Shown here one piece after another: positions 3,165 to 14,269 of a stretch of DNA of 17,021 nucleotides (position 1 is its first letter; each line of letters starts with the position of its first letter). The notes beneath the pieces are model-generated. The model was not told where the DNA came from, did no database searches, and saw only the letters and a program-made list of their open reading frames with translations. The translations under genes and the position numbers were made by a program. Origin of the DNA: an uncultured Lysobacter sp. Its GTDB lineage: Bacteria; Pseudomonadota; Gammaproteobacteria; Xanthomonadales; Xanthomonadaceae. The stretch is taken from the NCBI GenBank assembly GCA_902805755.1, contig CADCUA010000231.1, positions 1-17,021 on the forward strand, in the 5' to 3' direction.

Positions 3165-6100
3165 CTATCGCGCGCCGTCGGCTGCATCCTGCGACTGCAC
3201 CAGACTCGTCACGATCTCCAGCAGGCTCGCAGGGTCCACAGGCTTGGCGATGTGCTGCTGGAAACCTGACTGCAGTGCGCGGATCCGGTCCTGGGCGCGC
3301 GCATATGCAGTCACCGCGATCGCGGGCACCTCGCGGTTCGCGGGAACATTGCCCGCACGCACGCGACGAATGAGCTCGTAGCCGTCCGCGCCCGGCATGC
3401 CGATGTCGCTGACCAGCAGATCGAACGGTGCCTGGGCCAGCACCGCAAGCGCTTCGTCCACCGATCCCGCCGGCGCGACCCGGGCGCCGGTGCCTTCAAG
3501 CAGGCGCTGCATCATCAGGCGCGCATCCGCATCGTCATCCACGACCAGAAGGTGCTTGCCGACCAGCCGGCCGGACACTGCCAGCGGCTCGGACGCGCGT
3601 GGCTCACCCGGACGTTGCGCGCCCGCCGGCAATGGCAGCAGAACCGTAAATGTCGCGCCCTGCCCGGCGCCGGCACTGTCGGCCAGCACGCTGCCGCCAT
3701 GCAGTTCCGCAAGCCTTCGCACGATCGACAGCCCGAGCCCGAGGCCGCCGTGGCGTCGGACAATCGACGCATCGGCCTGGCGGAAACGGTCGAACACATA
3801 CGGCAGGAACTCGGGGTCGATGCCTTCGCCGCTGTCGCGCACGCTGATGCGCAGGTCCGATCGCTGCTGTGCAAGCTGCACCGCGATGCGGCCGCCGCGC
3901 GGAGTGAACTTCACCGCGTTGCTCAACAGGTTCCACATCACCTGCTGCAGGCGGTTCGGGTCAGCCTGGATCGTGACCGCCGCGGCCGGCTCGATCTCCA
4001 GGTCGATTGCAATCTGCTTGGCCTGAGCGGCAGGCAGCGCCGTTTCGACCGCGCTGCGCACCAGCGCATCGAGCGACACCGGCTGCACCTCGAGCGTGAC
4101 CTTGCCGGAGATGATCGAACTCATGTCCAGCAGGTCCTGGATGATCTGCGCCTGCGCGCGCGCATTGCGTTCGATCACGTCGATCCCCTGCGCAAGTTCG
4201 CCGCTGAGTTCGTGCTTCAGGCGCAGGATCGAGACCCAGCCGAGGATCGCGTTCAGTGGCGACCGCAACTCGTGGCTCAAGGTCGCGAGGAACTCGTCCT
4301 TCATGCGGCTGGCATGCTCGGCCGCGCCGCGCGCCTGCTGTTCGGCGTCCAGTGATTGCCGCAGCCGCTGGTCGAGCTGGTGCTTCTCGATGACGATGCC
4401 GGCCAGGTGCGTGCCCAGTCGCGACAGTTCCATGTCGCGCTCACCCGGTACGCGCGGCTGCCGGTAGTACAGCGCAAGCGTGCCGAGCACGCGCCCGTCG
4501 CTGCCAATGATGGGATTGGACGTGCAGGCAGCCAGGCCGTGCGCGGCAACGAGTTCGCGTGCACTCGCCCAGCGTGGATCCGAGCCCAGGTCCGCGCAGA
4601 TGATCGTGCGGCGCTCGAATGCCGCGGCGCCGCACGCGCCGACGTCGGCGGCGATGGGCAGATTATTCGACGCCCTGCGGTACTCGTCAGGCAGGCTGGG
4701 CGCCGCGCCGTCCAGCAGTTGGCGACCGTCATCGGACGCAAGCAGGATCGAACACAGCATGCCGTCGGCGGATTGCGACTCCAGGCGCCGCACCAGCGTG
4801 TCCAGCACGTCCGGCAAGGGCGATCCGGTTGCGATCAGTTCAAGCACGCGTTTTTCGGCCGCAAGCGCCTCTTCCACCTGCTTGCGCTCGGTGATGTCGA
4901 TGACCGAACCGACATAGCCGATCAACTCGCCGCGCACACCCCGCCGTGGCGAGGCGCTGTCGACGCACCAGCGATAGCTGCCGTCCATGCGACGCAGGCG
5001 GTATTCGACCACGAAGCCGGCGGGCTGCTCGTGGTCGCCAATAAAGGCCGCGTGCGCGCGTGCGTAATCATCCGCATGCACCGCCTGCATCCAGCCGGCG
5101 CCCAGGGCCTGATCGAGCGACTGCCCGGTGAATTCGCACCAGCGCTGGTTGACGTACTGGCAACGTCCGTCGGCGTCCGTCAGCCAGATCATCACCGGTG
5201 CGCTGTCCGACAACATGCGGAAGCGCGCTTCGCTTTCAGCCAGGGATGATTCGAACTCCACGCGCTCGCTGATGTCGGTATGCACGCCTACCCATTCGCG
5301 GGCGCCGCCCTGCACCTCTCCCTGCAGCGGCGCGGCGCGCACCGAACATACGCGGTAGCTGCCGTCACGCCTGCGCAACCGGTGCCGCATCACCAGCATG
5401 CGCTGCGCGGACACCGAGGCATGCCACTGCTCCAGCGTGGAGGCGGCATCGTCCGGATGCACCGCATCCATCCAGCCATACCCGCGGTACTGCTCGAATG
5501 TCTGCCCGGTGAATGCCGCCCAGCCGGGCTGTTCGGTGACGAACTCGCCGGTCGCGGTGCAGGTCCAGAAGATATTGCTCGTCGCTTCCACGGCGGCGCG
5601 GAAGCGGCGCTCGCTCCAGCGCAACTCGCGCTCCACGCGTGCGCGCTCGATGGATTCCCAGCAGCGGTGCGCGACATGCACCACCAGGTCCACTTCGCGA
5701 TCGGTCCACGTGCGTGGCGTGGCCTGGTGCACAGCCATGGCCGCAACGAAACGCCCGGCCTTGAGCACCGGTACGCATACCACGGCCTGGAGTTGTATCA
5801 GGCGGTAAGCGGTCGTATCGCCAATCGGAGGCTGGTGCGTATCGACGTCATCGACGCGGTATACGTGCCCCGCGCGCATCAGCTGCAGGACTTCGTGCCC
5901 GAATGCGGTGAATGTGTAGCGCCCCACGATGCTCGGCACGCCACGCGTGTAATCGCCGGTGAGGTTGAACGTGTCCTCGTCGGCTTCCACATCCGCATAC
6001 GCGCAGCGGTCCGCATCGAGATGCTCGCCAAGCAGGCGCGCACAGGTGCGCGTGATCTCGGCCGCATCCGTCAACGGACGCACCGCATCGTCGAGTTGGA

Positions 6101-7019
6101 CGAAGAAGCGGTCGCGCGCTTCCGTCCGGCGCCGCTCGGTCATGTCGATGGCGTGACCAAGCACGCCATTGACCCGGCCGTCGGGTCCGAACATCGGTTG
6201 GTAGATGAAGTCGAGGTAGCGCGTCTCGAACACGCCCATGGCACGGCGCAGGCGCACCGGCACGTCCTGCCCGGTGAACGGCTCGGCGGTCTGCACCACG
6301 CGATCGAGCAGGCTGATGACGCCCTGCTCGGCGACTTCCGGAACGGCCTCGGCCACCGTCATGCCGGTCGGGTCGCGGCCACCGATCAGCTCGATGTAAC
6401 GCTGGTTCGCGTATTCGAACTGGTAATCCGGTGTGCGCACCAGCGCCATGCAGACCGGCGACCGTGCGAATACTTCGGAAAGCTGTGAGCGCTCGTAGGC
6501 CAGTTGTTCCAGCAGGCGGTCACGCTCGCGCTCGATGCGTATGCGCGGGGTTTCCTCGGTGCATGCGCAGAACAGGCCGCCGATACCGCCGCGCCCATCC
6601 GGGATCGGGCTGTAGGACCAGGTGAAATAGGTTTCCTCGGCAAAACCATTACGCTCCATCACCAGCAGCACGCGCTCGTTCCAGGTGGCCTCGCCGCGCG
6701 TCATCACCGCATCGGCCTGGCGGCCGATCACGTCCCAGATCTCGCTCCAGACCTCGGGCGCGGGCCGTCCGAATGCATCGGGGTGGCGCTGTCCCAGAAT
6801 GGGAATGTAGGCGTCGTTGTAGAAGTTGATGAGCTGCTCGCCCCACCAGACGAACATGGGGAAACGCGAGTTCATGCAGATGCCGAGCGCGGCGCGCAGT
6901 GCCTCCGGCCAGGCGTCCACCGGCCCCAGCGGCGAGGCCGACCAGTCCGTCTGCATCAGCCGCGCTGCAGTTTCCGATCGGCTCGGCAGGATGCGGTACA
7001 GCGGATTGCGCTCCGACAC
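3165..7019 (-). CDS. Large soluble hybrid sensor histidine kinase (PAS-PAS-GAF-PAS-PAS-GAF-HisKA-HATPase-REC)
   Basis: Numbered from the GTG at 7019 (1284 residues). Order of domains: N-terminal PAS-like sensor (about 12-155, with the SETAARLMQTDWSASPLGP entry segment); PAS 178-300; GAF 305-460; PAS 470-590; PAS 596-714; GAF 720-880; HisKA 903-968 with phospho-acceptor His916 in LSHELRSPLN; HATPase 1014-1132 with Asn1034, DSGEGI and GLGLGLS boxes; receiver 1155-1275 with acidic Asp1161-1163, phospho-acceptor Asp1205, Thr1237 and Lys1259. No membrane segment or signal peptide is present, so it is cytoplasmic. The GTG has GGGAG 6 bases upstream; an in-frame TTG at 7037 is possible but has a poorer site. 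It follows the diguanylate cyclase on the same strand after about 160 bp. All kinase and receiver catalytic residues are intact. The signal is unknown; the GAFs show no obvious cofactor motif. Confidence 0.93.
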   Translation of the reverse strand: MSERNPLYRILPSRSETAARLMQTDWSASPLGPVDAWPEALRAALGICMNSRFPMFVWWGEQLINFYNDAYIPILGQRHPDAFGRPAPEVWSEIWDVIGRQADAVMTRGEATWNERVLLVMERNGFAEETYFTWSYSPIPDGRGGIGGLFCACTEETPRIRIERERDRLLEQLAYERSQLSEVFARSPVCMALVRTPDYQFEYANQRYIELIGGRDPTGMTVAEAVPEVAEQGVISLLDRVVQTAEPFTGQDVPVRLRRAMGVFETRYLDFIYQPMFGPDGRVNGVLGHAIDMTERRRTEARDRFFVQLDDAVRPLTDAAEITRTCARLLGEHLDADRCAYADVEADEDTFNLTGDYTRGVPSIVGRYTFTAFGHEVLQLMRAGHVYRVDDVDTHQPPIGDTTAYRLIQLQAVVCVPVLKAGRFVAAMAVHQATPRTWTDREVDLVVHVAHRCWESIERARVERELRWSERRFRAAVEATSNIFWTCTATGEFVTEQPGWAAFTGQTFEQYRGYGWMDAVHPDDAASTLEQWHASVSAQRMLVMRHRLRRRDGSYRVCSVRAAPLQGEVQGGAREWVGVHTDISERVEFESSLAESEARFRMLSDSAPVMIWLTDADGRCQYVNQRWCEFTGQSLDQALGAGWMQAVHADDYARAHAAFIGDHEQPAGFVVEYRLRRMDGSYRWCVDSASPRRGVRGELIGYVGSVIDITERKQVEEALAAEKRVLELIATGSPLPDVLDTLVRRLESQSADGMLCSILLASDDGRQLLDGAAPSLPDEYRRASNNLPIAADVGACGAAAFERRTIICADLGSDPRWASARELVAAHGLAACTSNPIIGSDGRVLGTLALYYRQPRVPGERDMELSRLGTHLAGIVIEKHQLDQRLRQSLDAEQQARGAAEHASRMKDEFLATLSHELRSPLNAILGWVSILRLKHELSGELAQGIDVIERNARAQAQIIQDLLDMSSIISGKVTLEVQPVSLDALVRSAVETALPAAQAKQIAIDLEIEPAAAVTIQADPNRLQQVMWNLLSNAVKFTPRGGRIAVQLAQQRSDLRISVRDSGEGIDPEFLPYVFDRFRQADASIVRRHGGLGLGLSIVRRLAELHGGSVLADSAGAGQGATFTVLLPLPAGAQRPGEPRASEPLAVSGRLVGKHLLVVDDDADARLMMQRLLEGTGARVAPAGSVDEALAVLAQAPFDLLVSDIGMPGADGYELIRRVRAGNVPANREVPAIAVTAYARAQDRIRALQSGFQQHIAKPVDPASLLEIVTSLVQSQDAADGAR

Positions 7020-7149
7020 GCAGGGCTCCCTGTTCAATCATTGCATCCCGGGCTGCGACCCGGTCCGAAGCCGGCAAGCGCGAGCAGGACGCGGCAGTGC
7101 CTGCCGGTTGCGGCGCCGCCAGGAATGAGATCTCCAGGCAGCTTAGCGT

Positions 7150-7181: not shown

Positions 7182-8381
7182 TCAGGCCACGATGTCGGAC
7201 AGCTTCGGATGCACCAGCAGTTTCACGCGATTGCGCCCGTCCTGCTTGGCCTGGTAAAGCGCGTTGTCGGCCGCGCGCAACAGGTCTGCACTCGACTGGA
7301 ACGCGGCCGGTGCCATCAGCGCGATGCCGACGCTCACGGTGAGCACGCGGTGGCTGCTGCCGGCGTGCTCCACCGCCAGGGCTTCGACCGCCTCGCGCAG
7401 TTGTTCGCCCAGCGCGGGCAGGTCCTCGGCCTGCATGCGATACCAGATCAGTGCGAATTCCTCGCCGCCGTAGCGCGCAGCCAGATCCATCGGACGGCGC
7501 GCCTGCTGCGCAATCACGCCGGCAACGGCGCGCAGCGCGGTGTCGCCCTGTGCGTGCCCGTAGCGATCGTTGTAGCGCTTGAACTGGTCGACGTCGATCA
7601 TCGCCACGGCCAGTTCCGCACCTTCGCGCGAGGCCTGCCGCCAGGTGCGGTCCAGATGGCTGTTGAGCACGCGGCGGTTGTACAGGCCGGTCATGCTGTC
7701 GCGTTCGGCCAGGTCGTTGAGCATGCCCTGCATGAGGAACGCGGTGCGCGAGCCGTACTCGATGAAGTAGCCGCCGTACGCGCCGACCGCATTCGCCGTG
7801 CACATGAAGATGATCTGGTACAGCCGCGCCTGCGGGTCGGGCTGCAGCGCGAACTCCATCGCGACAAATGCAATGAGCGTGGTGATGTTCACGATGAGCG
7901 CGCGCCACCAGCTCAGGCATGCGATCAGGTAGATGAAAAGCACGACGAGCAGCAGGCCTTCGTACGGAAGCGCATAGCCGCGAAGCAGCGCGGCGCCGAC
8001 CACCGCAACCGTGCCCAGGCCGGTGATGAGCGATGCCACGAAGATCGAGCGCTGCAGGTAACGCCGCCACACGAAGGAATGGCTGGTCAGCAGCACGATG
8101 GCGAACGCAGGCATGATCAGGCCCAGGCGGATGCCCGCTGTCCACCGGGCGACATCGGCCGGGAGCGTGGCAAGGTCGATCACGACGAACGCGCCGAACA
8201 GCGCAAACGCGAGGTACGTGGCCCAGCGCACGCGCATCAGATTCATGCTGTCGTTGAAGCGACGGAAATCACGCTCCAGCGGCCGCTCGAACCTGAGGCC
8301 GCGATAGCCGCGCTCGAACGCGCGACGGTATCGCGACGGTCCGGTAGCGCTCAGGACATCCGGGTTATCAAGATGCAGCAT
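7182..8381 (-). CDS. Membrane-bound diguanylate cyclase (GGDEF) with six transmembrane segments
   Basis: The enzyme makes cyclic di-GMP from two GTP at the inner membrane. The 399-residue protein has a basic N-terminal region (1-52) and six hydrophobic helices (about 54-72, 83-99, 111-132, 140-157, 159-178, 188-207). The GGDEF domain spans about 215-390: the metal-binding aspartate in MIDVDQFK (263), the active GGEEF at 305-309, and a canonical RxxD inhibitory site (Arg296-Asp299) five residues before it. It is therefore predicted to be active and product-inhibited. The ATG at 8381 has GGAG 4-5 bases upstream; the adjacent upstream TTG is too close to that site. It is divergent from the four-gene phosphotransfer operon and upstream of the large kinase on the same strand, so one of these kinases may govern it. 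No EAL domain is present. Confidence 0.95.
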   Translation of the reverse strand: MLHLDNPDVLSATGPSRYRRAFERGYRGLRFERPLERDFRRFNDSMNLMRVRWATYLAFALFGAFVVIDLATLPADVARWTAGIRLGLIMPAFAIVLLTSHSFVWRRYLQRSIFVASLITGLGTVAVVGAALLRGYALPYEGLLLVVLFIYLIACLSWWRALIVNITTLIAFVAMEFALQPDPQARLYQIIFMCTANAVGAYGGYFIEYGSRTAFLMQGMLNDLAERDSMTGLYNRRVLNSHLDRTWRQASREGAELAVAMIDVDQFKRYNDRYGHAQGDTALRAVAGVIAQQARRPMDLAARYGGEEFALIWYRMQAEDLPALGEQLREAVEALAVEHAGSSHRVLTVSVGIALMAPAAFQSSADLLRAADNALYQAKQDGRNRVKLLVHPKLSDIVA

Positions 8382-8574
8382 CAAGCTCCGACCATGAGGT
8401 GTAACGGTGCCAGTCCAGTGACCAGAAGCTGTATCGCCAAGCCCTGCAGCGATTACCGCAAGGACTGCCCCGGTTTTCCAGCATACGGCGCGGCAGCGGC
8501 AGCTTGTGCGAACCGTGGCAGCGCGGCCATCGTTATCCGTGCGGCGTGATCGTGCTGTTCCCGCCCGACGCGGC

Positions 8575-8760: not shown

Positions 8761-10263
8761 ATGCCCGTGACCGGGCACACCGCATCGCTGGCACGCGCGG
8801 TCGACCACGCCAACCGCCCGCTGGCGATCGCCACGTTCATCTCCGCGCTGGTACTCCTGCTGTCGGGGGTGCTTACGTACCGCGCGTTGCGCGCGAATGA
8901 CGAAGCGAATGGCTGGGTCGCGCACACCTATGAAGTCATCGCGCACCTCGAGGCGGTACGCGCGACCGTTACCTCGGCCGAAACCGCCGAGCGCGCCTAC
9001 CTGCTGGTCGGCGACCCTGCACAACTCGCGAGCTTCCGACACTTCAAGCGGCAGATCCCCGCGCGGCTGGCCGAACTGCGTCGACTGACGTCCGACAACC
9101 CGGCACAGCAGGCGCGGCTGGACTCCCTGCAACGCGCCGTGGCAATCCGGCTGGCCAGCCTGGACCGCGCAATCGCGATGCAGAGCAGCGGCGACCCCGC
9201 TGGCGCGGTGGCAATCGTGCGCAATTCCGGTCTGCGCCTCATGGAGCAGGTACGTACCGAGTTCAGCGCGATGCGTGACGCCGAACAGCGGCTGCTGAAG
9301 ATCCGTGTTGCGCAGGCGCGCTCGGCGACGCAGCTCGGCGCCGGGGCGACGTTCGGCACCAGCATCCTCGCCACCGCGCTGCTGGCGGCGCTGTATCTGC
9401 TGTCATCGCGCCATGCCTCGCGCCTTGCGCGCGAGCAGCGGGAATTGCTTGATTCGCGGGAACAGACACGCGCCAAGGCCATGGAGCTGCAGGCGGCCAA
9501 CGCCCAGCTGCAGCACGCGGCCGAGGTCCTGGAACAGCGCGTCAGCGAGCGCACCGCCGCACTCGGCGAGGCGAATGCGGAACTCGAGGGCTTTGCGCGC
9601 ACGGTCGCACACGACCTGCGCGCGCCGCTGCGCAACATCCAGGGCTACGCGACCGCGTTGCTGGAAGACGAGGCGCCGCGCATGAGCGCGGATGGCCAGG
9701 ACTACACGAACCGCTTGGCAGCCAGTGCCGGCCGGCTGGATGGCATGATCACCGACCTTCTCGCATACAGCCGTATGGCACGCGCCAGCCTGCACCTGGA
9801 GCGTGTGGACCCGGCTGCGGTGGTGGACGAGGTGCTGCAGGATCTGGTCGCCGACATCGAATCGACGCGTGCGACGGTCGAGGTGGCCGGGCCGCTGCCG
9901 GCCGTGCTCGCACACCGCGCGACGCTGGCACAGGTGCTTGCGAATCTGCTCTCGAACGCATTCAAGTTCGTGCTGCCCGGCGATGCACCGTACGTCGCGG
10001 TGGAGGCCACACGCCAAGGGGACATGGTTATCCTGTCGGTCACCGACCGCGGCATCGGCATCGCGGCAGAACACCACGAGCGCATCTTCGACGTGTTCGA
10101 ACGTCTGCACGGCCAGGAGCAGTACCCGGGCACCGGCATCGGCCTTGCGATCGTGCGCAAGGGCGTGGAGCGAATGGGCGGACAGATCACCGTGCACAGC
10201 CCCTTCGGACGCGGCGGCTCGCGCTTCGAGATCCGGCTGCCGGCCGCTGGAGCCTCGCCATGA
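8761..10263 (+). CDS. CHASE3-domain sensor histidine kinase (phytochrome-type kinase core)
   Basis: This 500-residue inner-membrane kinase has a transmembrane helix at about 21-41, a CHASE3-like periplasmic sensor (about 45-185, with ERAYLLVGDPA typical of CHASE3), and a second membrane helix at about 193-215. A coiled coil (220-272) follows instead of a clear HAMP. HisKA has His284 in VAHDLRAPLRNIQGY. HATPase has Asn399, DRGIGI (429-434) and GTGIGLA (457-463). The RLHGQEQYPGTGIG lid is typical of kinases related to cyanobacterial Cph1, though no bilin-binding GAF is present. CHASE3 ligands are unknown. The next gene, a single-domain regulator, overlaps by 4 bp, matching the usual Cph1-type kinase/Rcp1-type regulator pairing, so it is the likely cognate partner. 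The start is fixed by the upstream in-frame stop at 8722; a GTG at 8767 is an alternative. Confidence 0.92.
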   Translation: MPVTGHTASLARAVDHANRPLAIATFISALVLLLSGVLTYRALRANDEANGWVAHTYEVIAHLEAVRATVTSAETAERAYLLVGDPAQLASFRHFKRQIPARLAELRRLTSDNPAQQARLDSLQRAVAIRLASLDRAIAMQSSGDPAGAVAIVRNSGLRLMEQVRTEFSAMRDAEQRLLKIRVAQARSATQLGAGATFGTSILATALLAALYLLSSRHASRLAREQRELLDSREQTRAKAMELQAANAQLQHAAEVLEQRVSERTAALGEANAELEGFARTVAHDLRAPLRNIQGYATALLEDEAPRMSADGQDYTNRLAASAGRLDGMITDLLAYSRMARASLHLERVDPAAVVDEVLQDLVADIESTRATVEVAGPLPAVLAHRATLAQVLANLLSNAFKFVLPGDAPYVAVEATRQGDMVILSVTDRGIGIAAEHHERIFDVFERLHGQEQYPGTGIGLAIVRKGVERMGGQITVHSPFGRGGSRFEIRLPAAGASP

Positions 10264-10757
10264 ACGCGCAGCTGCCGACCGTGCTGCTCGCCGAGGACAA
10301 TCCGGACGACCGCTTCCTGATCGAACGTGCGATCCGCCGCTCGCGCCAGGCCGTGTCACTGCAGGTCGTGGGCGACGGTGCGCAGGCGATCGACTATCTC
10401 GCCGGCAATGCCCCGTTCCACGATCGCACCCGGCATCCGCCACCGCGACTCGTGCTGCTGGACTGGAAACTGTCCAGGCGCAGCGGGCTGGAAGTGCTGC
10501 AGTGGGTCCGGTCGCGCTCGCACCTGGACGGCCTGCCGGTCGTGGTGCTGAGCGCATCGGGCGAGCGCGAGGACGTATGCCAGGCGCTGGGGGCACGCGC
10601 GAACTCCTACCTGCAGAAGCCCGGCAGCTCCAGCGACCTGCTTGAACGCATGGACGCGACGCTGACCTACTGGTTGCAGCACAATCTCGGCCCCGCTGCC
10701 CTGGCCGGACCGCACGAACCCGCCGATGACGTCGCTCCGACTGCTGCTGCTCGATGA
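10260..10757 (+). CDS. Single-domain response regulator, Rcp1-type
   Basis: This 165-residue protein is a lone receiver domain with no output domain. Acidic pocket Glu12-Asp13, phospho-acceptor Asp68 in LVLLDWKL, Ser98 in the switch position, and Lys120-Pro121 are all present. The insertion between beta-2 and beta-3 (HDRTRHPPPR) is typical of Rcp1-like partners of phytochrome-type kinases. Residues 135-165 are a variable tail. The ATG overlaps the kinase stop (ATGA) and has GGAG 7 bases upstream. It is probably phosphorylated by the preceding CHASE3 kinase and acts by protein contact, perhaps with the following kinases. It carries the DNPDDR motif shared by the N-terminal receivers of the next two genes. 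Confidence 0.93.
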   Translation: MNAQLPTVLLAEDNPDDRFLIERAIRRSRQAVSLQVVGDGAQAIDYLAGNAPFHDRTRHPPPRLVLLDWKLSRRSGLEVLQWVRSRSHLDGLPVVVLSASGEREDVCQALGARANSYLQKPGSSSDLLERMDATLTYWLQHNLGPAALAGPHEPADDVAPTAAAR

Positions 10758-12240
10758 CAACCCTGACGACCGCCTGCTCGCCTTGCGCGAGTTGCGCCGG
10801 CAGTTCGAAACAGTGGACGTCACCGAGGTGAACGACCGCGAGGGCTTCGAGGCGGCGCTGGAACAGCCCGCGTTCGATATCGTCATCACCGATTACCAGA
10901 TGCAGTGGACCACGGGCATGGAGGTGCTGCAGCGGGTCAAGACGCGCTGGCCGCGCATGCCGGTGATCATGTTCACCGCAACCGGCACGCAGGAAATCGC
11001 CGTGCAGGCGATGAAGTCGGGCCTGGACGATTACGTCATCAAGAGTCCGCGCCACTACCTGCGCCTGTCGGTCGCCGTGCGCAGCTGCCTGGACCGAAAC
11101 GAAGTGCGGCTGCGCGCGGTGCGTTCGGAGACGCGCCTGCAGGCGCTGCTGGAGCACGCGCGCATGGGGCTGTTCCGGCTGTCGCTGGACGGCACCTTGC
11201 TGGATGCGAACCGTTCGATGCGCAATGTGCTTGCACTGGACGAAACCGCTGCGCTCGACGACGCCCGTCATCCGCTGCTCGACGCCGCGCGCGAACTTGC
11301 CGCGGGCCTTGCCGCACGTGGCGACACCGCCGAGCGCGAGGTCGTGGCGCCATGCGACCCGACGCGCGGTGACTGCTATTACGCACTCAAGGTCGTGCGC
11401 GTTCCGGTCAACGGCCATGACGCGATTGATGGACTCGTCGACGACACAACCTCGCTGCGCCACGCCGACCTCGCGTTGCATGCGCTGAACCGTGACCTCG
11501 AGCGCCGCGTCGAACAGCGCACGCAGCAGTTGCAGGACGCGAACGAGACGCTGGAAGCGTTCGCCTATTCGGTCTCCCATGATCTGCGCGAACCGGTGCG
11601 CACGCTGCAGGGCTACGCCCGTGCATTGCATGAGGATTTCAACGCCGGGCGGCTGGACGATGCACCGCTGTTCCTCGAACGCATGGCGGACGTGGCCGGC
11701 CGCGTCGAAGGCATGGTGACCGACCTGCTTGCCTATTCCACGCTCTCGCGCGCCGAACTCGCGCGCACCGGGGTGCGTCTGGAGGAAATCGTCGACGAGG
11801 CCTGTGGCTATCTGGCTTACGACACCTCATTCCAGCAGGCACGCGTGACGCGCGAGGGCGAGCCGTGGCCGGCCGTTCGCGCACACGCCGGCACGCTGGG
11901 GCAGGTGCTGGTGAACCTGCTGTCGAACGCCGCGAAGTTCATCGCCGCGGACACGCGCGCCGAGATCACCCTCGCCGCGCGTCGCGAAGGCGACCGCGTG
12001 CGCATGGAGGTCCGCGACAACGGCATCGGCATCGCCGAGCGCGACCATGCGCGCATCTTCGAGGTGTTCCAGCGCCTGCACGGGCAGGAACGTTATCCCG
12101 GCACCGGCATCGGCCTCGCGCTCGCACGCAAGGGCGTCGAGCGCATGGACGGCGCGATGGGCGTGGTGTCGGAAGCGGGTGCGGGCGCGAGGTTCTGGTT
12201 CGAATTACCGGCGACCGACGAAGCCGGAGCGATCACATGA
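10726..12240 (+). CDS. REC-PAS histidine kinase (receiver at the N-terminus, phytochrome-type core)
   Basis: This 504-residue soluble protein starts with a receiver (3-125): Asp10-Asp11, phospho-acceptor Asp56 in VITDYQMQW, Thr84 and Lys106. A degenerate PAS (about 138-245) and a short coiled coil (245-275) follow. HisKA has His285 in VSHDLREPVRTLQGY. HATPase has Asn401, DNGIGI (431-436) and GTGIGLA. The lid RLHGQERYPGTGIG is nearly identical to that of the CHASE3 kinase, indicating paralogy. The receiver in front of the kinase suggests that kinase activity is set by phosphorylation from elsewhere. Its ATG lies 32 bp inside the preceding gene with no visible Shine-Dalgarno, pointing to translational coupling. 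After the conserved Lys the sequence is Lys-Ser-Pro rather than Lys-Pro. No membrane segment. Confidence 0.92.
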   Translation: MTSLRLLLLDDNPDDRLLALRELRRQFETVDVTEVNDREGFEAALEQPAFDIVITDYQMQWTTGMEVLQRVKTRWPRMPVIMFTATGTQEIAVQAMKSGLDDYVIKSPRHYLRLSVAVRSCLDRNEVRLRAVRSETRLQALLEHARMGLFRLSLDGTLLDANRSMRNVLALDETAALDDARHPLLDAARELAAGLAARGDTAEREVVAPCDPTRGDCYYALKVVRVPVNGHDAIDGLVDDTTSLRHADLALHALNRDLERRVEQRTQQLQDANETLEAFAYSVSHDLREPVRTLQGYARALHEDFNAGRLDDAPLFLERMADVAGRVEGMVTDLLAYSTLSRAELARTGVRLEEIVDEACGYLAYDTSFQQARVTREGEPWPAVRAHAGTLGQVLVNLLSNAAKFIAADTRAEITLAARREGDRVRMEVRDNGIGIAERDHARIFEVFQRLHGQERYPGTGIGLALARKGVERMDGAMGVVSEAGAGARFWFELPATDEAGAIT

Positions 12241-14162
12241 CGCGCCCGCTCATGTTGCTGCTGGTGGACGACAACCCCGACGACCGCATGCTCGTCGTGC
12301 GCGAGGTCCGCAAGGTACTGCCGGACGCGCATGTGGACGAGGCCGCTGACGAGGCCACGCTGGTTGAATGGATCGAAGCCGGTCGCGAGTGGGACGTGGC
12401 GGTGACGGACTATCAGCTGCGCTGGTCGACCGGCATGGACGTATTCCATCGGCTGCAGGCGACGCGCCCGGGCCTGCCGGTGATCATGTTCACCGCCAGC
12501 GGCAGCGAGGAGCTGGCGGTCGACGCGCTCAAGCAGGGCGTGGACGATTACATCACCAAGACGCCCAAGCATTACGGCCGCGTGCCTTACGCCGTGCAGG
12601 CCGCTGCCGAGCGCCGGCGGCGACAGCAGGTCGCGGCCGCTGCCGAATCCGCGCGCGAGCAGAGCGATACGCTGCTCAAGCTCGCGCTGGAGGCGGCGGC
12701 GATGGAGACCTGGGAATACGACATCGCCGCGCGCCAGCTCACGCTGCACGGCCGTTCGCCGCGCCTGTCCGGCGGCGTGCGCCGCGAGCTGTCGGCCGAT
12801 GCGCTGCTGCAGGCAATGGCGCCTGCCGACATTGAAGCAGTGCGCGCGCAGTTCCGCGCGTCGGCTGATTCGAATCAGCGCTTCGAACGCGAATTCCGTA
12901 TGCACATCCGCAATGACCTGCGCTGGTTGCGTGCGGCCGGACTGCCCGACGGCCGTGGACGCGTGGTCGGCGTGGTGGAAGACATCACCGCGCGCAAACG
13001 CGCGGAGGAGTCGCTGCACGAAGCGGATCGCCGGAAGGACCAGTTCATCGCCACGCTCGCGCACGAACTTCGCAACCCGCTCGCACCGATCCGTTATGCC
13101 GTGCGCCTGCTCGAAACGGGAACGGACGCGGCGCAGATCGAACACGCACGCACGGTGATCGAGCGCCAGGCCGCGATGATGGCGGGCCTGCTGGACCAGC
13201 TGCTGGACCTGCGACGCATCGCGCACGGGCATTTCGCCCTGGCGCGCGCTGCCGTGGACCTGCGCGCGGTCGCACGCAACGCATTCGAGGATGCAGGGGC
13301 GTTGGCTCACGCCAGTTCGCACCGGTTGTCGCTGTCGATGCCCGATGGGCCCGTGCTGGTCGACGGTGACGCGATGCGCCTGAAACAGGTGCTGGACAAC
13401 CTGGTGCAGAACGCCCTCAAGTTCACGCCCGCCGGTGGTGCGATCGAAATCGCGGTGGAGGATCGCGCGGATGGCGCACTCGTGCGCATCACCGACACTG
13501 GCGTCGGCATCGCACCCGAGATGCTCGACAAGGTGTTCGAGCCGCTTGTGCAGGTCAATGCGGGGCCATCGGCCGCAACACGCGGTGGCCTGGGCCTGGG
13601 CCTTGCGGTGGCGCGCCAACTGGTCGAGTTGCATGGCGGCCGCATCGCCGCCAGCAGCCCGGGGCTTGGCCGGGGCACGACGTTCGCCATTCAACTGCCG
13701 CGCTTTGAAGCACAGACCGATGTCGACGCCAACGGGCCCACCGTCGTCCCGCCCCCCGCTCCTGCACCGGCGGATACGCACACACAGCCGACCTCCGCAT
13801 TGCGCGTGCTGATCGCCGACGACCAACCCGATGCCGCCGAAAGCCTGGGCATGGTGCTGGAACTGGAAGGACACGAAGTACGCATCGCGTTCGACGGCGC
13901 ACAGGCATGCGAGATCGCGCAGCAGTGGCAACCGGACGTCATGGTGCTCGACATCGGCATGCCGCAGATGGGCGGTGACGAAGTGGCCCGCTGGGTGCGG
14001 GCGCAGCCGTGGGGGAATGGAGTTTGGCTGGTGGCTGTCACCGGCTGGGGACGGGACGAGGACCGCCTGCAGCTGCAGAACGCGGGTTTCGACCTGCACC
14101 TGGTGAAGCCGGTGGAGGTCTCGCGTCTGCTCGTCGCCGTGCGCCCGCAAACCACCGGCTAG
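12237..14162 (+). CDS. REC-PAS-HisKA-HATPase-REC hybrid histidine kinase
   Basis: This 641-residue soluble hybrid kinase has, in order: receiver 1 (3-125; Asp11-Asp12, phospho-acceptor Asp58 in VTDYQLRW, Thr86, Lys108), a linker helix, a PAS/PAC-like region (about 145-255, ending VVGVVEDITARKRAEE), HisKA with His276 in LAHELRNPLAPIR, HATPase with Asn392, DTGVGI (420-425) and GLGLGLA (451-457), a Pro-rich linker (500-518), and receiver 2 (521-638; phospho-acceptor Asp572 in VLDIGMP, Thr602, Lys624-Pro625). The kinase core is of the ordinary hybrid type, unlike the two upstream kinases, while receiver 1 is a close relative of the receiver in the preceding gene. The ATG overlaps the previous stop by 4 bp with GGAG 7 bases upstream. 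The terminal receiver would normally pass phosphate to an HPt protein, and none is encoded here. The strong terminator follows. Confidence 0.93.
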   Translation: MTRPLMLLLVDDNPDDRMLVVREVRKVLPDAHVDEAADEATLVEWIEAGREWDVAVTDYQLRWSTGMDVFHRLQATRPGLPVIMFTASGSEELAVDALKQGVDDYITKTPKHYGRVPYAVQAAAERRRRQQVAAAAESAREQSDTLLKLALEAAAMETWEYDIAARQLTLHGRSPRLSGGVRRELSADALLQAMAPADIEAVRAQFRASADSNQRFEREFRMHIRNDLRWLRAAGLPDGRGRVVGVVEDITARKRAEESLHEADRRKDQFIATLAHELRNPLAPIRYAVRLLETGTDAAQIEHARTVIERQAAMMAGLLDQLLDLRRIAHGHFALARAAVDLRAVARNAFEDAGALAHASSHRLSLSMPDGPVLVDGDAMRLKQVLDNLVQNALKFTPAGGAIEIAVEDRADGALVRITDTGVGIAPEMLDKVFEPLVQVNAGPSAATRGGLGLGLAVARQLVELHGGRIAASSPGLGRGTTFAIQLPRFEAQTDVDANGPTVVPPPAPAPADTHTQPTSALRVLIADDQPDAAESLGMVLELEGHEVRIAFDGAQACEIAQQWQPDVMVLDIGMPQMGGDEVARWVRAQPWGNGVWLVAVTGWGRDEDRLQLQNAGFDLHLVKPVEVSRLLVAVRPQTTG

Positions 14163-14198
14163 CGGCATCCAACCCGGTACACGACAGTCCGAAAAGAA

Positions 14199-14223
14199 AA
14201 AACCCGGGCAAGACCCGGGTTTT
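14199..14223. terminator. Bidirectional Rho-independent terminator between the kinase operon and glmS
   Basis: AAAACCCGGG (14199-14208) and CCCGGGTTTT (14214-14223) form a perfect 10-bp stem with a 5-base loop. Four T residues end the plus-strand copy, and the run of A residues before it (from 14192) supplies a longer U-tract for the minus strand. It lies between convergent genes, 37 bp after the hybrid kinase stop and 47 bp after the glmS stop in the other direction, so it probably ends both transcripts. Confidence 0.92.
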
Positions 14224-14269
14224 CATGACAAGGCCCGTGATACATGGGCCCTGCAGACGTGTCGCCGCG

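What the first reader, a model, noticed from the sequence alone, without database searches (positions are those of the whole stretch)
8761..14162. Four-gene stacked phosphotransfer operon with receivers feeding kinases and no output domain
Seen: CHASE3 kinase, lone receiver, REC-PAS-kinase and REC-PAS-kinase-REC are encoded in one direction with overlaps of 4, 32 and 4 bp and end at one terminator. Every phospho-acceptor His and Asp is intact (His284, Asp68, Asp56, His285, Asp58, His276, Asp572). Known: phytochrome-type kinases usually pair with one Rcp1-type regulator. Inference: the lone receiver or shared kinases phosphorylate the N-terminal receivers of the next two kinases, making a cascade that integrates a periplasmic CHASE3 signal with PAS inputs. 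No DNA-binding, enzymatic or HPt domain is encoded, so the exit of the relay is unknown.
Basis: partly seen in the sequence, partly recalled or inferred. Interest (0 to 1): 0.7.

Follow-up and report, generated by a model that had tools for sequence, protein, structure and literature searches.

The report
Receiver-gated kinase operon, four genes
This is a real, patchily distributed four-gene bacterial signalling operon in which one membrane kinase probably talks to three receivers at once, two of them gating further kinases; the parts are of a known kind, but the combination and its missing output are little studied.

Summary
In detail: CHASE3-kinase, lone receiver, REC-PAS-kinase and REC-PAS-kinase-REC lie on one strand with overlaps of 4, 32 and 4 bp, and the seven named His/Asp acceptors are present. 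It is no accident of one genome: the four-gene order recurs in Caldimonas tepidiphila, the same four parts on a Gloeothece plasmid, and three of the four (no lone receiver at the locus) in the congener G003. Related operons with the same first positions are common in the order, their third gene carrying a kinase or a GGDEF/EAL module; in two a sigma-54 regulator follows. The lone receiver and the next gene's N-terminal receiver share the docking helix alpha-1 operon by operon, the rest of the domains does not. I favour a broadcast over a linear chain: kinase 1 (perhaps also kinase 3) phosphorylates the lone receiver and both N-terminal receivers, gating kinases 3 and 4; kinase 4 feeds its own C-terminal receiver. 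By known chemistry a lone receiver does not phosphorylate other receivers. Close precedents: BphP1-AgR-ExsG-ExsF, LvrA-LvrB, CheA3-CheS3. New variant of a known kind; phosphate flow and exit are untested.

The parts
8761..10263 (+). Gene 1 (P1, 500 aa): membrane sensor kinase, CHASE3 (res. 49-184), HisKA with His284, HATPase_c; kinase core closest to bacteriophytochrome (Cph1-class) kinases
10260..10757 (+). Gene 2 (P2, 165 aa): lone receiver, Rcp1/bacteriophytochrome-regulator type, Asp68
10726..12240 (+). Gene 3 (P3, 504 aa): Rec-controlled kinase, REC (Asp56)-PAS-DHp (His285)-HATPase_c
12237..14162 (+). Gene 4 (P4, 641 aa): REC (Asp58)-weak PAS-HisKA (His276)-HATPase_c-REC (Asp572), a hybrid kinase with an extra N-terminal receiver
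10726..10757 (+). 32-bp overlap of genes 2 and 3; 4-bp overlaps at 10260-10263 and 12237-12240
14198..14224 (.). terminator-like hairpin between the convergent operon and glmS; scored on the minus strand only

Best explanation
A branched, receiver-gated kinase network. Step 1 (inferred): the membrane kinase P1 senses a periplasmic cue through CHASE3 and autophosphorylates at His284. Step 2 (inferred from docking helices and relatives): P1 phosphorylates three receivers with a common docking helix: the lone receiver P2 (Asp68), the N-terminal receiver of P3 (Asp56) and that of P4 (Asp58). Step 3 (inferred by analogy with LvrB and ExsG): receiver phosphorylation switches kinases P3 and P4 on or off through the helix that runs from the receiver into the PAS and signalling helix. 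Step 4 (inferred, weakest): P3, of the same kinase class as P1, acts back on the same receivers, so that a periplasmic and a cytosolic PAS input converge; P4, of another class, passes phosphate to its own C-terminal receiver (Asp572) and from there to a phosphotransfer protein or regulator encoded elsewhere. P2 is a side branch (diffusible output, sink or feedback), not an obligate link. Shown by sequence: the anatomy, the conservation and the shared docking helix. Not shown: any phosphotransfer, the sign of the gating, and the exit.
For: Same unit elsewhere: Caldimonas tepidiphila carries all four in order (P1 56%, P2 54%, P3 69%, P4 58% identity); a Gloeothece plasmid has CHASE3-PAS-HK, REC-PAS-HK, REC, REC-PAS-HK-REC; the kinase cores of genes 1, 3 and 4 from window, G003 and Caldimonas each form a supported clade (99/98, 100/100, 100/99), i.e. 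joint inheritance. Shared docking helix: alpha-1 of P2 is NPDDRFLIERAIRR, P3-REC NPDDRLLALRELRR, P4-REC1 NPDDRMLVVREVRK, P4-REC2 QPDAAESLGMVLEL; by alpha-1, P4-REC1 and P3-REC rank 1 and 2 of 37 against P2, though by the rest of the domain they rank 32 and 13 of 37. Over 28 operons the alpha-1 of the lone receiver matches that of the next gene's receiver in the same operon (z 5.3; 24 after thinning, z 4.5), the rest of the domain does not (z -1.2, -0.9), and the twelve strongest of 101 sliding windows all overlap alpha-1; with three loci that one search had left out (L091, L094, L100) z is 5.7 for 31. P1 and P3 have R-G-Y at +7/+11/+12 from His, P4 A-Y-A. Relatives with a readable output at the third position: REC-...-EAL in 3 of 20 regions, GGDEF as well in the two scanned by Pfam; a sigma-54 regulator as fourth gene in L161 and L168. 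Precedents: BphP1 to AgR and ExsG-REC; LvrA to LvrB-Rec; CheA3 to CheS3-REC1 (abstract and headings).
Against: No phosphotransfer was measured. The alpha-1 signal comes largely from the contrast between two operon classes; inside a class it is weak: thinned, p 0.11 (14 xanthomonad-type) and 0.20 (8 cyanobacterial); unthinned, with near-copies, p 0.016 (18) and 0.033 (11). On the kinase side I see no matching change: the sensor kinases have R at +7 in both classes, mostly with G at +11 and F, Y or L at +12, while the receivers' alpha-1 differ; so kinase-receiver co-variation is not shown, and R-G-Y is a class feature. Of the positions named in the PDB titles of rewired HK853 (+8, +11, +15 from His260), P1 and P3 agree in two of three. 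P3-REC and P4-REC1 are each other's nearest receivers over the whole domain too, so that pair is no independent evidence. In the first test of five, lone against gene-3 receiver gave p 0.024 (11 loci; rest 0.59); gene-3 against gene-4 receiver 0.042, but the rest of the domain 0.028; lone against gene-4 receiver 0.15, rest 0.023. Alpha-1 serves other functions as well. In NT-26 the Rec-kinase ExsG does not act on the lone receiver AgR, against convergence of P1 and P3 on P2.
Confidence: 0.5

Rival explanations
1. Linear kinase chain: P1 phosphorylates only P3-REC, which switches kinase P3, which phosphorylates P4-REC1, which switches kinase P4.
For: Gene order, intact receivers on P3 and P4; LvrA-LvrB precedent; G003 keeps P1, P3, P4 without P2 at the locus.
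Against: P2, P3-REC and P4-REC1 share alpha-1 and P1 and P3 are of one kinase class, which predicts cross-talk rather than order; Gloeothece and other loci shuffle the order or lack parts.
Confidence: 0.17
2. Phosphorelay in which the DHp His of P3 or P4 works as an HPt: phosphate moves P1 His to receiver to DHp His to next receiver.
For: Loci with two transmitters and several receivers are common, and in RedCDEF and TodST the second transmitter takes phosphate this way (PMC3018481 passages).
Against: P3 and P4 keep HisKA and HATPase_c domains above the Pfam cut-offs, so they look like active kinases; no direct test.
Confidence: 0.14
3. P1-P2 is the functional pair with P2 as a diffusible output or phosphate sink; P3 and P4 are separate hybrid kinases merely co-transcribed.
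For: P1 core and P2 match bacteriophytochrome kinases and their regulators in PDB; 19 of 20 hand-picked relatives have a lone receiver right after the kinase.
Confidence: 0.14
4. Chance juxtaposition of unrelated two-component genes.
For: Only 2 of 395 family genomes have gene 3.
Against: Same order in Caldimonas, same parts in Gloeothece and other cyanobacteria, supported joint clades.
Confidence: 0.02

Closest known systems
BphP1-AgR-ExsG-ExsF cluster, Rhizobium sp. NT-26 (PMC3899027; passages and section 8 read)
   Same: Four-gene cluster: a bacteriophytochrome kinase phosphorylates a lone receiver and the N-terminal receiver of a second kinase; branched.
   Different: ExsG is an HWE kinase with a plain REC-kinase layout and does not act on AgR; the fourth protein is a plain receiver, not a hybrid kinase; the sensor is a phytochrome, not CHASE3.
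LvrA-LvrB-LvrC, Leptospira; Rec-controlled kinases (PMC13269768; abstract, passages, discussion read)
   Same: N-terminal receiver as the input of a kinase; P3 matches LvrB by whole-sequence E 9.6e-19 (best stretch its REC, 4-142, though no single stretch passed 1e-8) and its model matches LvrB chains at Foldseek ranks 2-7 (TM only 0.28, so domain order rather than pose).
   Different: LvrB has no PAS; a known anti-sigma output LvrC exists.
CheA3-CheS3-CheY3, Rhodospirillum centenum (PMC3868531; abstract and outline only)
   Same: One kinase phosphorylates a receiver of another kinase, which acts on a lone receiver.
   Different: Chemotaxis-type CheA kinase; the lone receiver is reached through the second kinase only.
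Cph1-Rcp1 / bacteriophytochrome-response regulator pairs
   Same: Kinase cores of P1 and P3 hit bacteriophytochromes; P2 hits 6xvu, RphyB and Rcp1.
   Different: No phytochrome sensor here, and extra receiver-gated kinases.

Membership tests
Rec-controlled histidine kinase (Rec-HK; LvrB, ExsG, PhcR) - gene 3 | N-terminal REC with intact acceptor Asp, followed by DHp and CA in one chain | tested here: met
   Asp56 and His285 invariant in the 40 aligned members
Rec-controlled histidine kinase (Rec-HK; LvrB, ExsG, PhcR) - gene 3 | helical linker from REC to kinase | tested here: met
   model helices 112-144 and 242-306 with a PAS between; LvrB itself has Rec-DHp-CA without PAS
Rec-controlled histidine kinase (Rec-HK; LvrB, ExsG, PhcR) - gene 3 | REC phosphorylation changes kinase activity | not testable with these tools
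   needs biochemistry; LvrB is activated, ExsG inhibited
Rcp1-type lone receiver - gene 2 | single REC domain, closest solved relatives are phytochrome response regulators | tested here: met
   6xvu E 4.8e-21, 4zyl RphyB 3.4e-20, 1i3c Rcp1 2e-15
Rcp1-type lone receiver - gene 2 | encoded with and phosphorylated by a Cph1-class kinase | tested here: inconclusive
   adjacency to such a kinase met; phosphorylation not tested
Bacterial phytochrome - gene 1 | PAS-GAF-PHY photosensory module | tested here: not met
   only CHASE3 before the kinase core in Pfam; it shares the kinase class, not the sensor
Classical phosphorelay | HPt domain in the operon | tested here: not met
   no Hpt match on the window contig C231; 10 matches elsewhere in G000
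BphP1-AgR-ExsG-ExsF type branched cluster | kinase + lone receiver + Rec-kinase adjacent | tested here: met
BphP1-AgR-ExsG-ExsF type branched cluster | sensor kinase phosphorylates both the lone receiver and the Rec-kinase's receiver | not testable with these tools
   only indirect support from alpha-1

The most novel reading that the evidence does not exclude
One docking helix is shared across the receivers of an operon so that a single membrane kinase broadcasts to a lone receiver and to gates on two further kinases; this 'broadcast cassette' recurs in two phyla and moves between orders as a unit, with kinase, c-di-GMP and (one gene further on) sigma-54 outputs exchanged behind a constant front half. 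In the window the output slots are both filled by kinases, making a kinase-gating network encoded in one operon.
Probability: 0.38. Interest if true: 0.6.

Novelty: new variant of a known kind. Interest (0 to 1): 0.42.

Why it matters
Rec-controlled kinases are called frequent but of largely unknown regulation (PMC13269768 abstract), and naming what phosphorylates their receivers is hard. These operons point to candidate upstream kinases for a set of them, and give a cheap test: receivers of one operon should share alpha-1. If right, it shows how bacteria integrate several inputs through gates on kinases rather than through a straight relay.

Tried and rejected
Rejected: a relay through the lone receiver (chemistry, recalled; gene 2 absent from the operon in G003). 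Rejected: chance clustering. Not accepted as an output: the divergent diguanylate cyclase (7182-8384, -), which has no REC in Pfam and no tblastn match in the 19 kb around the G003 operon.

Led nowhere: searches for gene 3 in wider samples found few orthologues: class, 369 genomes (own and four others at E<=1e-60; one of the four matches residues 4-497 at 34%, three match the kinase part only), phylum, 398 (only the own genome at E<=1e-80), Caldimonas family 379 and order 240 (only Caldimonas). Massilia-type clusters could not be fetched; their gene 3-gene 4 linkage is inferred only from equal contig lengths in two listings, the 120 best of 3827 and the 120 best of 1895 hits, compared by eye. 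Searches of the open-licence paper library showed me no description of the CHASE3-kinase/lone receiver/Rec-kinase operon in their listings; most subscription papers are not held. The McvR paper (PMC8995066; abstract and passages) concerns a Xanthomonas single-domain regulator; I could not link it to this operon. TciKR (PMC12826045, passages) has a REC-anti-sigma regulator, not this layout.

Selection and dropped rows: the 20 regions were hand-picked from the kinases listed, those whose match begins at query residue 218 or later. Of the 28 loci L011-L038 (kinase plus about 1.5 kb each side), 16 have no receiver gene beside them, all of a family whose match begins at 126-133; 11 have one, and L024 is an HK-REC-HK protein. 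The background receivers are 33 taken from the 30 best-scoring of 65 matches in the genome. One search left out L100 (lone receiver 0.7 kb off on the other strand, poor alpha-1 match), L091 and L094 (near-copies of L093), and the second flanking receivers of L092 and L093; one search put L100, L091, L094 back. Of 14 cyanobacterial-class genomes with a match, G1562 (kinase part only) was not mapped. Domain maps use small HMMs that I built from Pfam-located domains, not Pfam itself, and some ORF starts are too long.
Full report
WHAT IS THERE. Four open frames on the plus strand, 8761-10263, 10260-10757, 10726-12240 and 12237-14162, overlap by 4, 32 and 4 bp. Pfam assigns CHASE3-HisKA-HATPase (P1), REC (P2), REC-HisKA-HATPase (P3) and REC-HisKA-HATPase-REC (P4). 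The seven named His and Asp residues are in place. A PAS in P3 is sub-threshold in Pfam (E 0.0093), but 32 of 40 family members hit PAS_8 at E<=0.01, and the AlphaFold model (mean pLDDT 88.6, pTM 0.52, 40 sequences) shows a PAS-like unit at 147-240 between two long helices. The relative placement of domains in that model is not reliable at this pTM. The hairpin at 14198-14224 was scored on the minus strand only.

WHERE IT LIVES. Equal contig length (1,586,696) links G003 to Cognatilysobacter bugurensis, so the window is inferred to be from that genus (Lysobacteraceae). Gene 3 at E<=1e-75 is in 2 of 395 genomes of the family, the window and G003. The operon lies at different places in these two: in G003 glmS is followed by an orthologue (60% over 1284 residues) of the window's 1290-aa kinase, with no operon gene between, while the operon is on another contig. 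None of the six congeners whose glmS downstream region I fetched, G003 among them, carries the operon there (G002 had no glmS match, and the G007 region is only 8.6 kb). Caldimonas tepidiphila (Burkholderiales) has all four genes in order at 54-69% identity; ten N lie between its genes 1 and 2, so that junction is not exact. Kinase cores of genes 1, 3 and 4 from the three genomes form supported clades of their own. Patchy presence, different sites and joint ancestry suggest horizontal movement of the cassette; this is inference.

WIDER FAMILY. In the class of Pelatocladus (cyanobacteria), 14 of 126 genomes have a gene-3 match at E<=1e-65, Pelatocladus included. I mapped 13 regions from 12 of these with Pelatocladus and a Gloeothece plasmid, 15 loci in all; G1562, with a match to the kinase part only, was left out. 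A lone receiver is the neighbour of REC-PAS-HK in 10 of 15; L100 has one about 0.7 kb away on the other strand; L089, L090, L096 and L101 have none adjacent. A REC...HK-REC gene lies downstream on the same strand in 5 (L070, L090, L097, L098, L100), a REC-HK in 2 more (L067, L096), and on the other strand in L101. A sensor kinase, lone receiver, REC-PAS-HK and REC-PAS-HK-REC occur together in L070 and L098 (there with a PAS sensor and two CRP-like genes between), and in L067 without the C-terminal receiver. The Gloeothece plasmid encodes CHASE3-PAS-HK, REC-PAS-HK, REC, REC-PAS-HK-REC. L. korlensis also lists a P2 homologue on that contig length; C. bugurensis is not among the 120 listed of 203.

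In the window's own order a related layout is common. Of 20 hand-picked kinase regions, 19 have a lone receiver next to the kinase and 17 then have a receiver-headed gene: REC-HK or REC-HK-REC in 10, a split REC / HK-REC in L166, REC...EAL in 3 (two scanned by Pfam also have PAS, GAF and GGDEF), and a short or partial receiver with no further domain found in L171, L172 and L174. L169, counted in the 10, holds a second module with REC-PAS-HK-REC. L173 has no third receiver gene, L175 is cut by the contig end, and L176 is a different protein (HK-REC-HK). L161 and L168 continue with an NtrC-type sigma-54 regulator; L159 has a gene of similar length not scanned by Pfam. L161 has overlaps of 4, 23 and 4 bp. 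So the front half is constant and the back half is exchanged.

WHO TALKS TO WHOM. Specificity of kinase-receiver docking is known to lie in receiver helix alpha-1 and in the DHp helices (established knowledge, recalled; PDB titles name rewired positions in HK853/RR468). P2, P3-REC and P4-REC1 are 57-64% identical in 14 alpha-1 positions, though P2 is only 28% and 22% identical to the two elsewhere; against 37 receivers they rank 2 and 1 by alpha-1 but 13 and 32 by the rest, and P4-REC2 ranks 23 by alpha-1. P3-REC and P4-REC1 are each other's nearest over the whole domain, so that pair adds little. Across 28 operons the lone receiver and the next gene's receiver match in alpha-1 within the operon (z 5.29; thinned to 24, z 4.50) and not in the rest (z -1.20; -0.91); the twelve strongest of 101 sliding windows start between -8 and +3 of alpha-1. 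Putting back three omitted loci gives z 5.66 for 31, rest -1.49. The limits: much of the signal lies between two operon classes; inside a class it is p 0.11 and 0.20 thinned, 0.016 and 0.033 unthinned. Kinases P1 and P3 have R-G-Y at +7/+11/+12 from His (positions recalled from EnvZ work), P4 A-Y-A; but R at +7, mostly with G at +11 and F, Y or L at +12, is shared by the sensor kinases of both operon classes, so the kinase side shows no matching change. The tree puts sensor and REC-PAS kinases in one supported clade (99/99) apart from P4-type kinases.

NATURAL DELETION. In G003 gene 1 ends 78 bp before gene 3 and nothing resembling gene 2 is translated in the gap. Whether gene 2 moved elsewhere was not tested. 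With Caldimonas and L. korlensis both having it, loss from the operon is the simplest reading, so the lone receiver is unlikely to be an obligate intermediate.

MECHANISM. Phospho-Asp to Asp transfer between receivers is not known to me, so the lone receiver should not phosphorylate the others. The published four-protein cluster of Rhizobium NT-26 is the best guide: BphP1 phosphorylates AgR (lone receiver) and ExsG-REC, phosphorylation inhibits ExsG, and ExsG passes phosphate to ExsF but not to AgR (passages and section 8 read). LvrB shows the opposite sign, activation (abstract, passages and discussion read). The sign in P3 is therefore open. A rival in which DHp works as an HPt has precedents too (PMC3018481, passages).

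EXIT. No HPt or output domain is in the operon. The genome holds 10 Hpt matches, none on the window contig C231, and 63 receivers over the Pfam cut-off, the operon's own included; the genome is 82% complete. P4-REC2 to an unlinked HPt is the likeliest exit, by analogy only. In relatives the exit is visible as GGDEF/EAL proteins or sigma-54 regulators.

VERDICT.

Noticed in passing
window 3165-7037 (-): A 1290-aa hybrid kinase with several PAS and GAF domains and a C-terminal receiver lies near the operon on the other strand; in G003 its 60% orthologue sits downstream of glmS.
   Followed up: partly
window 7182-8384 (-): GGDEF protein without a receiver in Pfam, divergent to the operon with 376 bp between; no match around the G003 operon.
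   Followed up: partly
L068 5650-9228: REC-PAS-HK followed by REC-PAS-GGDEF-EAL: a receiver-gated kinase beside a receiver-headed c-di-GMP enzyme.
   Followed up: partly
L161 2658-7843 and L168 2131-7653: CHASE3-kinase, lone receiver, REC-kinase, sigma-54 NtrC-type regulator in a row: the same front half with a DNA-binding exit.
   Followed up: partly
L067 8498-10277 and L098 8519-10435: Two CRP-like regulators sit between the sensor kinase and the lone receiver in two cyanobacterial loci; possible outputs.
   Followed up: no
third genes of L157-L163, L168, L169 (6733-8298), L170: The REC-kinases of this order use an H-box HDLRN-(I/T/L)-LQP unlike that of P3; in L161 Pfam finds HATPase_c but no HisKA.
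   Followed up: no
L091-L094: REC-PAS-HK genes flanked on both sides by lone receivers on the opposite strand, in four cyanobacterial-class genomes.
   Followed up: no
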